Source of the DNA: Deltaproteobacteria bacterium
GTDB lineage: Bacteria > Myxococcota_A > UBA796 > GCA-2862545
DNA length: 64,000 bases
Direction of reading: 5' to 3'
Assembly (NCBI GenBank): GCA_007693595.1
Contig: REDI01000050.1
Location: 248,001 to 312,000 of the forward strand
Shown: in pieces, positions 39,642 through 48,998 of the stretch
Layout: each line of letters starts with the position of its first letter
Position numbering within the stretch: the first letter of the stretch is position 1
Notes under the pieces: generated by a model
The model's input: the letters and a program-made list of their open reading frames with translations, nothing else
Told to the model about the DNA's origin: nothing
The model's database searches: none
Position numbers and translations under genes: made by a program

Positions 39642-42600
39642 TCAGATGGAGCTGGCCGCGGCGATGGCCACCGCCAGCGCACCGGGGTCGAAGGTCCGGT
39701 CCCGGATCAGGTTGGACCGGAGCTCCTGTACGATCACGAGCTGAAGTCTGTAGATCGCGAGCGGTACCCGCTTGATCACGTCGGGCTCTTCCATGAGGTG
39801 CCTCGGCACCAGCAGCTCGGGCTGGTTGATCGGGTTGAACTGGACGCGGAGGTACCGGCCTGCCCACACCTTCAGCACGATACTCAAGGAATGGCCTGTT
39901 AGTAGCTCGTACTGCTCGTTGATGGGTCGAATGATGAGATCGGACAGCCCTTCGTCGGGATCGATGGGCTCACGCATCGACCGAGGCGCCAGTTCAGCGG
40001 TCCACACCTCGGGCAGGCGGGGCCTGCTGTCGGGGTCGGCGTCTCTCCAGCGCTCGACGGTCCAGGCTTGGTGGGGCTCGGGCAGCCGAAGGCGGTGGGC
40101 GATGGTGTGCGTAAGCCCCGCGAAGGGCTCGTGTGGGTTTCGATAGATCCGACCCGCCAGATAGCGACCCAGGTAGTCTTGCGCTGCGGCCGCTTGGGGA
40201 TCGCCCGAGGCATCGACCTGAAGCCACGGGAGCAGGAGCTCGTACAGCCGGAGCGCCCCGAGTCGGATCTGCTGGAGCATGCCGGGGGTGAGCGAGGTGC
40301 CGCGCTCGACCTGAACCACGCCGGCGCAGGGGATGTCGGTCGTGGTCGGGGTGAGGACCTCGTCGTGGGAGAGCCCCTCGACGAGCACGCTCGGCGTGGG
40401 ATCGAAGGGTAGCCGAAGTCCGAGCCACCCACTTAGACCCGGCGCGTTGAGGGGCTCCCGCACCAGCCAAGACTGGGTCTCGGGACGAGCCCACACCGTG
40501 GGGTCGTCGTCGACGAGGAGCGTGACCTGTTGCTCGTGCCCCATGGCCTTGACCAGGGCGTCGAGCGCGTGAAGGCCGTCGAGGGTGAGATCGACCACGC
40601 CGGGTTCATGGGTGTGGAGGCCACCCCGCGCGTTGACCCGAGCCTCTTTTCCGCTGAGAAGCTGCTGGATAGCAATGGATCGCCCAGCCCCATCGCGTAG
40701 GGTCGCCAGGCCGGGCTGCTCGAGCAGGCGGGCGAGGTGAAGCGAGGCCACCTCGAAGAGGTCGGCACGCTGGCGGGCGCGCGGCTCCGTCAGGTTCTTG
40801 CCTGTGTGCTGCATCTTGTCGATCTCCGCGGCGAGCAGCCTCAGGCCCCCGCTTCGGTCACGGGGGTGCTCGTCGTGGTGGACCCAGTGGGCGAGGAAGG
40901 GAGCGTCGAGGGGGAGCGCCCGCCAGCCAGTCGGGGGAGTCTCGGGGGTGGACAGGCCATCGACGAAGATCAGCTCGGTCGCGGAGGACAGGCCATCGAG
41001 GGCGCGGCTGGACCAGACGTCTCCCGTTCGGCCCACGATGGCGAGGGGCGGACGCCGAGGTCCTGCCGGACGGAGGTGCCCGTGACCGAAGCGCTCCTCG
41101 AGCGGGGCGAGCTCCACTTCTTGCTCGGGGTCACGGAGGCGACGGACCTGCGGGTTGCCCTGGAGCTCGACCAAGTCCTTCAGGGTCAAGTCCCCGTCCT
41201 CTGCCTCGGCGAGGGGGGCGGAGAGCAGAGAGTCTCGGCGGGATTCCCACGTTGTCGGGAGGTGGATCCTCAGGGTAGCGACGCCGTCTTCGCCTCGGAG
41301 GAAAGAGGGTCGAGCGAAGCTGTGGAGCAAGGTGCGGACGAGCCTGGAGGCCCTCGGATCGAAGGACTCGGGGATGGCGCCGATGACCTCGGCCGCGACG
41401 AGGGGGCCCAGGTTGGGCAGGCTATCGAGGGCGGGCCTGTGATGCTCTACCTTGGAGGGAAAGGTCAAGACCAGGCTGACATGAGGCAGCTCAGGGAGGA
41501 GACGATGGCAGCTCAGGGTCTTGTCTTTGTGGCGGACGAGCATCGGGGTGCCCGAGCCTTGAGGCACCGCATCCCACGCGGGCTCGTGCCCCGAGAGGTG
41601 GAGGCGGATCTCGAGGCGGCACGCGTCGCGGTCGGCTGTGATCCCCAGCGCGCTGCTCACGAGCCCCGGATCGACCCGGTGCGTCGAGATCACCACGTCG
41701 CGCTCCAGGGCGTGCTTGACGAAGGTGACGTCCTGGGACTGGGTCAGTCGCGCGAGCTGGGGCAGGTGTTCGGCCAAGGTCGCGGCTTGTCCCTGCGTCA
41801 TCGTGAGCACTCGGTAGGGGAAGTCCAGCGGGTCACAGGCGGCGATCATGGGCACGGTCGGCTCTTCGATGAAGAAGATGGGGTGCTCGGGGGGGTGAGC
41901 CTGGGGGTCGAGGAGCTGCTCTTTGGTCAGGGGGCCGCGGGGGCGGAGCTGCTTGAGGGTGTCGGGAAGCGGCTCCATGCGAGGCTCCGCCGGCCCTCCA
42001 CCTTCGGTGGACTCCGCGATCTCATCGGGGATGGGGGGGAGGTTTTGGGGGGACCACGACGAGCCTAGGAGCTGCTTGGCGACGGGCACGAGCTGGTGCA
42101 GGAGTCGGGCCCAAGCGGCATCTTCGACGATGTCGCTCATGTCGGCTGTCTTGCGCAGGCGCTCGGTCGAGAGGATCCCTCCGATCCTCCCCCCGAAGAT
42201 CTCGCGGCGCACGACCTGTACGCCACCGATGACGATGGTGAGGGTGTCGGGGCCGACCGCGAGGGAGCCTCGGACGTCGCCGAAGTCAAAGCGTCGCTGC
42301 TTGTCGACCCCGAAGACCGTGAGCCCGATGCGGCTGCACAGTCCGATGGGGCTCCCTCCGTTGACGAGGATCGGCGCGGGCGACTGGCCACAGTTGATCT
42401 CGACGATCTCGGCCTCTGCGCCCTTCTCGTGGCTTCGCAGACGGTGGAGCATCGAGAGACGATGCTGCACGTAGACGTAGGTACCCTGCATGGGCTGATC
42501 GGTTCGGCCGACCTTTGCTTCCTCGGTGCCGGTCATCTCGAAGCGGATCGAGCCCTCGGCGGTGCCATCGCCGCTCTCGATCCGGATCGAGACCGGGCGC

Positions 42601-47700: not shown

Positions 47701-48998
47701 CGGATGGCCTCGGCGAGGCGATCCTGCTGGAGCCAGGCGCGCCCCATGTCGAAGTGGGCGCGCGCCCGATCGCGGGCGGCTTGGTCGGATGCGGAAGCGC
47801 TCGCCGCCTCTTCGCTACGCTCCAGACCCTTTCGGGCGAAGGGGTGGTCGGGATCGAGCTGGAGGGCCTTTCTCCACCAGATCATGGCTTCGGGGTGGCG
47901 TTCGAGGGCGGCCAGACACGCGGCCTTGCCTCGGACGGAGAAGGCGCGCCGAGGCTGGAGCGAGACGGCCTCGTCAAACTCGCTCAAGGCTTCGTCATAG
48001 CGACCGAGCATGCGCAAGCACTCGGCGCGGCCCGCGCGGGCGTTGGCATGGCGCGGGGCCCGGGCGAGCAGCACGTCGAAGGTGTCCAGCGCCTCGGCAT
48101 ATCGGCCTGCAAGGCGTTGGGCGTCGCCCAGGCCATAGAGGATCTCGTCGTCGTCGGGGTCGATCTCGGCCAGGGCCGCGCATACCTCGGCTGCCTCTTC
48201 TTGACGATCGAGGCGCTGCAAGGCGTCGATCAGGGCGAGACGTGGCGCCCGGGACTGCGGGGCAGCCTCGCTCGCTTCGCGCAGGGAGACGATGGCCTCA
48301 GCGGTCCGACCCTCGGCGAGCAGCGCCACCCCCCACTCAAGCCCGAGCTCGGCGGTGAGCTGGGTGCTGTCGGGGGTGGACAGGTCCTTGGGGGGTGGGG
48401 CTGGCGCCTCACCGCTTCGGAGGTCCGAGAGCTTCGTGCGACTCTCTTCGCGGCCTGCGATCGCGAAGCTCGACGAGGGCTCCAGCACGAGGGCTTCTGT
48501 CCACAGCGGCAGAGCCTCTTCGTAGCGTCCCAGGGCGTTGAGGGTTGCCGCCTGGCCACGCAGGGCGAAGGCGTGATCCCGCTGCCGCTGTAGAGCCTCT
48601 TGAAAGGTGCTCAACGCCTGGCGAAAGCGCCCGAGCATACGGAGCGTCTCGGCCTTGCCGGCGAGCCCGTAGAGGCTCTGGGGCTCGAGGTGCAGCACGC
48701 GCTCGTAGGAGCGCAGTGCTGCGTGATGGCAGCGCGCTTGGCGAAGCGCCTCGGCGAGCCCCAAGGTGAGCTGTGCGTTGTCGGGGGCGTTCGCCACCGC
48801 CTGCCGCCAGCACTCGACCGCGCGGGTCCAGCGCTCCAAGCCTTCGTAGCAGCGCGCGAGCCTCCGGGCGGGCTCGGGATCGTCGGGCTCGCATCGCAGG
48901 GCCTTGCGCAGCTCTTCGACCGCGTCGACGAGCTCGCCGCGCGCTTCGTGCGCGTCGGCTCGCTCGAGATGCGCTCGCGCTCGCTCACGCCGGTTCAT
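44772..48998 (-). CDS. TPR-Clp fusion: Hsp100-type double AAA+ ATPase with long TPR N-terminus
   Basis: 1408 residues. Residues 1 to about 820 are roughly twenty TPR units in place of the usual Clp N-domain. AAA1 has Walker A GDPGVGKT (near 862) and Walker B VLFIDELH; AAA2 has GPSGVGKTELARQL (near 1136), VVLLDEFEKAHPEV and TSNAG. Hexamers of this class thread proteins through a pore; the pore segment GTKYRGTFEERL of AAA1 is present. Between the rings there is no ClpB/ClpC middle coiled coil. After TSNAG the loop contains VGF (near 1264), the ClpP-docking tripeptide of ClpC. It is first of three genes in a chaperone-like operon. Confidence 0.92.
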   Translation of the reverse strand: MNRRERARAHLERADAHEARGELVDAVEELRKALRCEPDDPEPARRLARCYEGLERWTRAVECWRQAVANAPDNAQLTLGLAEALRQARCHHAALRSYERVLHLEPQSLYGLAGKAETLRMLGRFRQALSTFQEALQRQRDHAFALRGQAATLNALGRYEEALPLWTEALVLEPSSSFAIAGREESRTKLSDLRSGEAPAPPPKDLSTPDSTQLTAELGLEWGVALLAEGRTAEAIVSLREASEAAPQSRAPRLALIDALQRLDRQEEAAEVCAALAEIDPDDDEILYGLGDAQRLAGRYAEALDTFDVLLARAPRHANARAGRAECLRMLGRYDEALSEFDEAVSLQPRRAFSVRGKAACLAALERHPEAMIWWRKALQLDPDHPFARKGLERSEEAASASASDQAARDRARAHFDMGRAWLQQDRLAEAIRALSAASEIAPTWDEPWFLLGIAHARAQRFDRAVHAFENCLARRPSHVEAAYHRGRCLRRHGRLQAALDAFEAALELAPGDLRAQLGRAECARELGLLQECLPLYDTILDKHPRHLGALCGKATVLNELERFDEAMPLWVEASHESPNSANVQRGLVACQLGLRQQRPKLETSQVRRAAAVRSLERARRLHNGRDIDGAIKACEHALFLDPTYADASFRLGMIHEQQGQLLEAIAAYSQCLEIDPGSYQAATNLGESHRKNVDYSKAIEAYDRALRIRPDYLYAIAGRAESLRMQGHYSESLGWFDRALALEPLHAFAIQGKAAALNALARFTEALPLWNQALELNPESTFATEGRAFCENGLETIEAPPEDAEADADESPTPLLDEQGRDLTALARRGELGPVIGRAREIRTLMKTLVRRQKANPLLLGDPGVGKTAVVEGLAQQLVGEDVPERLRGLRLIELSMGSLVAGTKYRGTFEERLRGIVQEASEQPGVVLFIDELHTLVGAGRTEGGSLDAANILKPALARGEITVIGATTLPEFRKHIEPDSALERRFQPISIAEPSLPESLELLRGLASTYVEHHGVDVDDAALAACVTLSHRYLPDRRLPDKALDLLDEACAEASLDEIPVVTSRIVAQVLSERTGIPVHQLTAEERARLSALEIELSRRVKGQDQAIARLARAVRLCRAGLRDPRRPQGVFLFVGPSGVGKTELARQLASALFPGGDAVIRLDMSEYSERFTTSRLIGAPPGYAGHGEPGQLTERLRRRPYAVVLLDEFEKAHPEVQSLFLALFDEGHLNDSEGRKVDARNALFILTSNAGAPRVGQGTVGFSASDPHSAADRMVEQARKHFQPELLNRIDGVVPFSPLTPDALRAIAIQHLDALAKRAAQASVVFTYDDQVVARCAEHDKSDAFGARAVLRAIDTLIAEPLSRLLLSDPAERGPALHAELREGSIHLGPSQPAVLDELELEQV

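What the first reader, a model, noticed from the sequence alone, without database searches (positions are those of the whole stretch)
39642..48998. Three-gene Hsp100/Hsp90-like operon: TPR-Clp fusion, GHKL ATPase, degenerate GHKL partner
Seen: three minus-strand genes in a row. The first encodes about twenty TPRs fused to a two-ring Clp ATPase, the second an intact Hsp90/MORC-type ATPase, the third (ATGA overlap) a 1102-residue protein with a GHKL-like but motif-poor start; a U-tailed hairpin follows. Known: TPR proteins bridge Hsp90 and other chaperones in eukaryotes, and Hsp100 and Hsp90 (HtpG) families both handle misfolded protein in bacteria. Inference: this is a self-contained remodelling machine in which TPRs select clients or dock the GHKL protein. 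I know of no described bacterial system with this exact trio. An anti-phage role is also possible, since GHKL and AAA+ proteins occur in defence systems.
Basis: partly seen in the sequence, partly recalled or inferred. Interest (0 to 1): 0.85.

Follow-up and report, generated by a model that had tools for sequence, protein, structure and literature searches.

The report
Paired Hsp90-like and pseudo-Hsp90 machine
The three neighbouring genes do not form one machine: the big TPR-Clp gene is an unrelated neighbour, while the other two belong with two overlooked genes to a conserved, apparently undescribed bacterial system built round an active Hsp90-like ATPase and a giant, probably catalytically dead Hsp90-like partner.

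Summary
The three minus-strand genes are real and as described: TPR-Clp fusion, intact GHKL ATPase, and a 1102-aa protein overlapping it by ATGA. As a trio they are not a conserved unit. In the genome's family the TPR-Clp gene is found in 16 of 21 genomes and lies beside parC-parE where that can be read, never beside the GHKL pair outside this window; in the same-genus genome the pair is flanked by a potassium channel instead. The GHKL gene and its partner are adjacent in 67 of 76 assessable loci from Myxococcota, Elusimicrobia and Eremiobacterota-type genomes. The partner's first 300 residues have the Hsp90 N+middle fold (TRAP1, Z 16.6), but the nucleotide-binding Asn and Asp are lost. Distant lineages add a dedicated AAA+ gene. 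Best reading: a four-protein Hsp90-like remodelling machine, function untested. X, the coiled coil and the partner match no family in the libraries searched. The TPR-Clp protein is a separate ClpA/ClpC-like unfoldase.

The parts
36630..37625 (+).
   Evidence: HMM finds 23 relatives in X/GHKL/Big loci, scores 215-412 bits; alignment A5; no Pfam or NCBIfam family
37622..38527 (+).
   Evidence: 30 ORF matches in GHKL loci; co-occurs with GHKL in 43 of 49 genomes; AlphaFold pLDDT 94.5, no Foldseek PDB match at E<=0.001; no family in Pfam, NCBIfam, PADLOC, PHROGs
39642..42950 (-). Big: 1102-aa partner; residues ~24-306 are a pseudo-Hsp90 (N + start of middle domain), the rest is a large diverging alpha/beta region
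   Evidence: AlphaFold model, VIA Z 16.6 to TRAP1 4z1i_C, 264 aligned, 4.1 A; N-box Asn replaced by A/S/G in all 25 sequences with a residue there, G1 Asp lost; no family
42947..44674 (-). GHKL: 575-aa active-looking Hsp90/sacsin/MutL-like ATPase, ATGA overlap with Big
   Evidence: HATPase_c_3, sacsin-like NF047352, HtpG N-domain best solved match, all Bergerat motifs invariant in 11 sequences
39623..39640 (-). terminator-like hairpin after Big
   Evidence: 7-bp stem, T-rich tail; weak
44772..48998 (-). TPR-Clp: 1408-aa TPR array fused to a two-ring Clp ATPase; adjacent but NOT part of the system
   Evidence: family-wide gene in a parC-parE block; [V/M/L]GF at the ClpP-docking-loop position in 13 of 13 sequences aligned
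38569..39591 (-). AurF/R2-like ferritin-fold gene between X and Big; not conserved with the system
   Evidence: sub-threshold Pfam AurF; the same slot holds an unrelated 815-aa protein in the same-genus genome
50148..54406 (-). parE (50148-52070) and parC/gyrA-like (52067-54406): the ancestral neighbours of TPR-Clp
   Evidence: Pfam; synteny with TPR-Clp in relatives

Best explanation
The window holds one conserved four-protein system (CC, X, GHKL, Big) next to an unrelated TPR-Clp gene. Shown by sequence, structure prediction and co-occurrence: GHKL has an intact Hsp90-like ATPase site; Big starts with an Hsp90-like N+middle module whose ATP-binding residues are lost; the two are encoded side by side nearly everywhere; X co-occurs with them genome by genome, and CC accompanies X. 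Inferred: GHKL and Big form an asymmetric Hsp90-type heterodimer (or GHKL dimers exchange with Big), in which ATP-driven N-terminal closure of GHKL clamps a client held by the fast-diverging C-terminal region of Big; one GHKL can serve several Big proteins; the coiled-coil CC and X act as scaffold or adaptor that couples the clamp to its target, and in some lineages a dedicated AAA+ ATPase adds unfolding or disassembly force. That makes it a client-specific protein (less likely DNA) remodelling machine. The client is unknown. TPR-Clp is a separate ClpA/ClpC-like unfoldase whose TPR array replaces the usual N-domain and which probably feeds ClpP.
For: Pair adjacency in 67 of 76 assessable named loci, 4 more cut by contig ends; convergent order YqeY-CC-X ... 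Big-GHKL also in the same-genus genome; X and GHKL in 43 shared genomes of 331, Fisher 5e-31, including genomes where X lies on another contig than the pair; pseudo-Hsp90 fold and lost catalytic residues of Big; intact motifs of GHKL; one GHKL with two or three Big genes in L085, L095, L067, L071, L088, L090; dedicated AAA+ gene next to GHKL in about 10 loci, and in 9 phylum genomes all of which carry X; GroES-like gene just upstream of GHKL in one clade.
Against: No complex was predicted or measured; heterodimerisation is an analogy to Hsp90/MutL. 22 GHKL-positive genomes lack a detectable X and 8 loci lack a detectable Big (a ninth, L072, has one behind an assembly gap), so parts are dispensable or too diverged to see. 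No client or phenotype is known; MORC, MutL and Topo VI show that the same fold can act on DNA. Co-occurrence counts are not corrected for phylogeny.
Confidence: 0.5

Rival explanations
1. One reading: TPR-Clp, GHKL and Big form one Hsp100/Hsp90 machine in which the TPRs dock the GHKL proteins, by analogy with eukaryotic TPR co-chaperones or R2TP.
For: Adjacent in the window with a 97-base gap and no terminator-like site between them, so co-transcription is possible; within the own family all 11 genomes with Big also have TPR-Clp (11/0 versus 5/5, p 0.012); TPR or AAA+ genes turn up near the pair in other lineages.
Against: No TPR-Clp beside the pair in any other locus read; TPR-Clp has its own parC-parE synteny and occurs in 5 family genomes without Big; no TPR-Clp-grade homologue in the Big-positive genomes of other families; the same-genus genome has another gene upstream of GHKL.
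Confidence: 0.06
2. An anti-phage or other conflict system: GHKL senses and Big's diverging C-terminus recognises invader proteins, triggering an effector.
For: Patchy distribution (22 of 58 close relatives, 49 of 331 in the phylum for X), fast divergence (window versus same-genus GHKL 52%, X 48%, Big 34-45% identity), Big multiplication, GHKL proteins in Shedu and restriction systems (PMC12137116, PMC2292703).
Against: No PADLOC family hit beyond generic ATPase domains; no toxin, nuclease or methylase recognised in CC, X, GHKL, Big or the dedicated AAA+ gene; neighbours examined are mostly housekeeping genes; no match on plasmids or phages, only short generic GHKL similarity in viral contigs.
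Confidence: 0.18
3. A DNA-remodelling machine of the MORC/MutL/Topo VI type, with the GHKL-Big clamp closing on DNA and CC and X as loaders.
For: GHKL also matches MutL and Topo VI profiles; Big's model also matches MORC2 (Z 14.5).
Against: Closest solved matches are HtpG and sacsin for GHKL and TRAP1/Hsp90 for Big; no helicase, nuclease or methylase seen with the system in the neighbours examined, unlike MORC operons (PMC2292703).
Confidence: 0.2

Closest known systems
Hsp90 family (HtpG, TRAP1)
   Same: GHKL has the Bergerat motifs and best solved matches to HtpG; Big residues 24-306 have the Hsp90 N+middle fold
   Different: two genes, one active-looking and one with a lost ATP site; no classical HtpG profile score (NCBIfam HtpG 26.6 bits against a cut-off of 371); partners CC and X unknown to Hsp90
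Sacsin (Hsp90-like repeats) and NCBIfam NF047352 sacsin-like ATP-binding domain
   Same: GHKL scores 47.0 against a cut-off of 50; large proteins built on Hsp90-like modules whose ATP binding is debated in sacsin (PMC9880540)
   Different: separate small active and giant inactive chains, no DnaJ or HEPN domain recognised
MORC / paraMORC restriction-modification operons (Iyer 2008, PMC2292703)
   Same: bacterial GHKL + S5 proteins in conserved gene neighbourhoods, sometimes two GHKL families together
   Different: no SFII helicase, nuclease or methylase in the neighbours examined; partner is a pseudo-ATPase
ClpA/ClpC-ClpP unfoldases
   Same: TPR-Clp has two AAA+ rings, pore loops and a conserved [V/M/L]GF at the ClpP-docking loop
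   Different: about 800 residues of TPR instead of a Clp N-domain; below the curated ClpA, ClpB and ClpV cut-offs
R2TP (Hsp90 + AAA+ RUVBL1/2 + TPR)
   Same: theme of Hsp90-like ATPase with AAA+ and TPR proteins, seen loosely in several lineages
   Different: the window's AAA+/TPR protein does not co-localise with the pair elsewhere; no RuvBL or PIH proteins recognised; analogy from general knowledge only

Membership tests
GHKL/Hsp90-type ATPase (GHKL protein) | N-box Glu/Asn, G1 DxGxG, G2 GxxGxG motifs | tested here: met
   E30, N34, D65, G67, G69, G95, G98, G100 invariant in 11 sequences
GHKL/Hsp90-type ATPase (GHKL protein) | curated HtpG or Hsp90-family model at its cut-off | tested here: not met
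   PRK05218 HtpG 26.6 of 371 bits, PRK14083 32.6 of 455 bits
Hsp90 fold (Big N-terminus) | Bergerat N-domain followed by S5-like middle domain | tested here: met
   residues 24-306, VIA Z 16.6 to TRAP1, 264 aligned, rmsd 4.1, 11% identity; Foldseek E 3e-12
Active GHKL ATPase (Big) | N-box Asn and G1 Asp for Mg-ATP binding | tested here: not met
   Asn position is A/S/G in 25 of 25 and the G1 Asp is replaced (W/Y74, G76, G77); the Glu and Gln of the N-box remain
ClpB disaggregase (TPR-Clp) | equivalog score and coiled-coil M-domain after AAA1 | tested here: not met
   686.7 of 1232.1 bits; the AAA1 lid (to 1061) is followed by AAA2 at 1130 without the ~120-residue insert (and reading of the sequence)
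ClpA/ClpC unfoldase (TPR-Clp) | ClpP-docking loop (I/L/V-G-F/L) in the second ring | tested here: met
   [VML]GF in 13 of 13
ClpA/ClpC unfoldase (TPR-Clp) | curated ClpA equivalog cut-off and Clp N-domain | tested here: not met
   633.9 of 993.15 bits; TPR array instead of the N-domain
MORC/paraMORC restriction systems | co-encoded SFII helicase, nuclease or methylase | tested here: inconclusive
   none among the immediate neighbours examined, but not every locus was annotated in full
Known anti-phage systems (PADLOC-DB 2.0.0) | matches to the protein models of a named system | tested here: not met
   only generic GHKL, AAA or coiled-coil overlaps; window CC, X and Big without a significant match
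R2TP-like TPR/AAA+/Hsp90 module | stable co-localisation of the three components | tested here: not met
   TPR-Clp not next to the pair in any other locus read

The most novel reading that the evidence does not exclude
A categorically new bacterial remodelling machine: an Hsp90-type clamp made of one active subunit and one dedicated, catalytically dead, client-specific giant subunit, with a partner of unrecognised fold (X), a coiled-coil scaffold and, in some lineages, its own AAA+ motor.
Probability: 0.35. Interest if true: 0.8.

Novelty: new variant of a known kind. Interest (0 to 1): 0.58.

Why it matters
Bacterial Hsp90 is usually thought of as a single homodimeric HtpG with few dedicated partners. 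A widespread two-chain Hsp90-like system with an inactive, diversifying partner and further conserved proteins of no known family would give bacteria a client-specific Hsp90-like pathway, and cultured carriers (Plesiocystis, Enhygromyxa, Nannocystis) make it testable. Separately, the TPR-Clp family would be an unfoldase whose substrate receptor is a long TPR array.

Tried and rejected
Trio as a unit: rejected on synteny and distribution. First genome-contig scan with Big alone found nothing; the GHKL alignment worked. An apparent GHKL-Big fusion in L072 was rejected: undetermined bases lie between the two parts. X against solved structures: no Foldseek hit at E<=0.001, best VIA Z 5.3 to uricase (T-fold-like sheet), too weak to use; no sequence match in the PDB. 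The rest of Big (after residue ~306) is hardly covered by the structure matches and was not folded alone. Plasmid, phage and viral searches gave no true member. A second copy of the pair on contig C65 of the own genome has no X or TPR-Clp beside it. Literature searches found no description of the system, within an open-access library only. The dedicated AAA+ gene is absent from 58 close relatives; the phylum search, where it is found in 9 genomes, serves as the positive control.
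Full report
OBSERVATION. The three ORFs exist as described: TPR-Clp 44772-48998, GHKL 42947-44674 and Big 39642-42950, all on the minus strand, with an ATGA overlap between GHKL and Big and a 97-base gap between TPR-Clp and GHKL. Pfam and NCBIfam confirm the TPR array, the two Clp rings and an intact GHKL domain; Big has no family. 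The hairpin after Big is a modest 7-bp stem.

THE TRIO IS NOT A UNIT. The own genome carries a second GHKL-Big pair without TPR-Clp. In the other loci read around homologous pairs (L019-L114) no TPR-Clp was found (best TPR similarity 45 bits). A search of 58 relatives with the Clp part finds homologues at 59-70% identity, about 1400 aa where complete, in 16 of the 21 genomes of the own family and nothing of that grade outside it, where only generic Clp proteins at 42-49% identity appear. In the family it lies next to parE and a gyrA/parC-like gene in most genomes where the flank can be read, also in genomes that lack Big. In the same-genus genome the gene upstream of GHKL is a divergent inward-rectifier potassium channel. 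All 11 family genomes with Big also have TPR-Clp (p 0.012), a weak hint confounded by phylogeny.

THE REAL UNIT. GHKL alignment A1 retrieved 80 named loci from Myxococcota (Nannocystis, Plesiocystis, Enhygromyxa, Paraliomyxa, Polyangia and other MAGs), Elusimicrobia, Candidatus Eremiobacterota, SZAS-1 and UBP9. Big relatives lie directly next to GHKL in 67 of 76 assessable loci. Clustering the neighbours brought out two recurrent genes, a coiled-coil protein (CC) and a 300-350-aa protein (X), and both are in the window on the plus strand: CC 36630-37625 and X 37622-38527, overlapping by ATGA. The same-genus genome keeps YqeY-CC-X facing Big-GHKL, with Big split over two contigs. X is found once in the own genome, in the window. 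In 58 relatives X and Big share 19 genomes (22 and 21 carriers, p 3e-10); in 331 genomes of the phylum X and GHKL share 43 (49 and 65 carriers, p 5e-31). In several genomes X sits on a different contig from the pair, so the link does not rest on adjacency alone.

WHAT THE PROTEINS ARE. GHKL keeps all Bergerat motifs and is closest to HtpG, sacsin and MutL among solved structures. Big is homologous to GHKL over about 250 columns (hhalign E 2.3e-6; a Big-only profile hits active GHKL proteins at E down to 5e-9). Its AlphaFold model (mean pLDDT 77.6, N-module mostly above 85) matches TRAP1 and other Hsp90s over residues 24-306 (Z 16.6; Foldseek E 3e-12). The N-box Asn is A, S or G in all sequences with a residue there, the G1 Asp is gone and the G2 loop is degenerate, while E48, Q51, K267 and D270 are kept: a conserved pseudo-ATPase. 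The C-terminal part diverges much faster: a profile of it finds only close relatives whereas the N-terminal profile finds nearly all. Long Big proteins (up to about 1900 aa) show no recognised domain. X folds confidently (pLDDT 94.5) but has no usable match among solved structures. CC looks like a coiled coil and has no family.

VARIATIONS. One GHKL can accompany two or three Big genes (L085, L095, L067, L071, L088, L090). In L053, L059, L073, L074, L076, L090, L092, L100, L111 and L112 a dedicated AAA+ gene lies just upstream of GHKL; in the phylum it is found in 9 genomes, all of them X-positive. Some Eremiobacterota-type loci carry a separate protein with a Big-like N-module followed by TPRs (L061, L066, L089), and one Myxococcota genome has a TPR gene directly upstream of GHKL (L021, the same contig as L036). 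So AAA+ and TPR proteins do associate with the pair in places, but as different genes from the window's TPR-Clp.

MECHANISM. Shown: pairing, loss of the ATP site in Big, co-occurrence. Inferred: an asymmetric Hsp90-like clamp in which GHKL supplies ATP-driven closure, Big supplies client recognition through its diverging C-terminal region, and CC and X couple it to the target. Defence and DNA remodelling remain possible (about 0.2 each). Against defence: no hits to defence models, no copies on plasmids, phages or viral contigs apart from short generic GHKL similarity, and the neighbours examined are ordinary genes.

TPR-CLP. The fusion is real and conserved in its family. It lacks the ClpB M-domain, keeps both pore loops and Walker motifs, and has [V/M/L]GF at the ClpP-docking-loop position in 13 of 13 sequences; it is best read as a ClpA/ClpC-like unfoldase whose substrate-binding N-domain is a TPR array. 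That function is inferred from sequence.

LIMITS. Most genomes are MAGs, so absences are soft. ORFs in GC-rich DNA were chosen by homology, and annotation of neighbours is partial. Some loci from the two collections are the same contig (for example L021 and L036, L024 and L040), so locus counts are quoted for the named set only. Co-occurrence was not corrected for phylogeny. No complex was modelled. The paper library is open-access only, so a description elsewhere cannot be excluded.

Noticed in passing
window 44772-48998 and loci L139-L151: TPR-Clp is a family-wide TPR + ClpA/ClpC-like fusion next to parE/parC with a conserved [VML]GF ClpP-loop motif; a candidate ClpP unfoldase with a TPR receptor.
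   Followed up: partly
G000:C65 (L019 7100-12015): A second, diverged GHKL-Big pair in the same genome (43% and 36% identity), without X or TPR-Clp nearby.
   Followed up: partly
L053, L059, L073, L074, L076, L090, L092, L100, L111, L112 upstream of GHKL: A dedicated AAA+ gene (~550 aa, invariant DIDTA where a Walker B might be expected) found in 9 of 331 phylum genomes, all X-positive.
   Followed up: partly
L061 16636-18312, L066 8194-9873, L089 15238-16923 (all -): A protein with a pseudo-Hsp90-like N-module followed by TPRs near the GHKL-Big pair.
   Followed up: no
L065 9567-9956, L084 9567-9956, L091 6535-6924: A GroES/Cpn10-like gene lies about 11 bases upstream of GHKL in one clade.
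   Followed up: no
L022 3824-10809, L032, L033, L034: A second subtype with ~500-aa GHKL and 1700-1800-aa Big; G037 carries both subtypes about 5 kb apart.
   Followed up: partly
window 38569-39591: AurF/R2-like ferritin-fold gene between X and Big; the same slot in the same-genus genome holds an 815-aa protein with MopE and FG-GAP motifs.
   Followed up: partly
L072 2286-7991: An ORF that looks like a GHKL-Big fusion but has undetermined bases at the junction.
   Followed up: yes
L049 1474-3450: A Schlafen AlbA_2 + HATPase_c_4 protein sits between X and GHKL.
   Followed up: no
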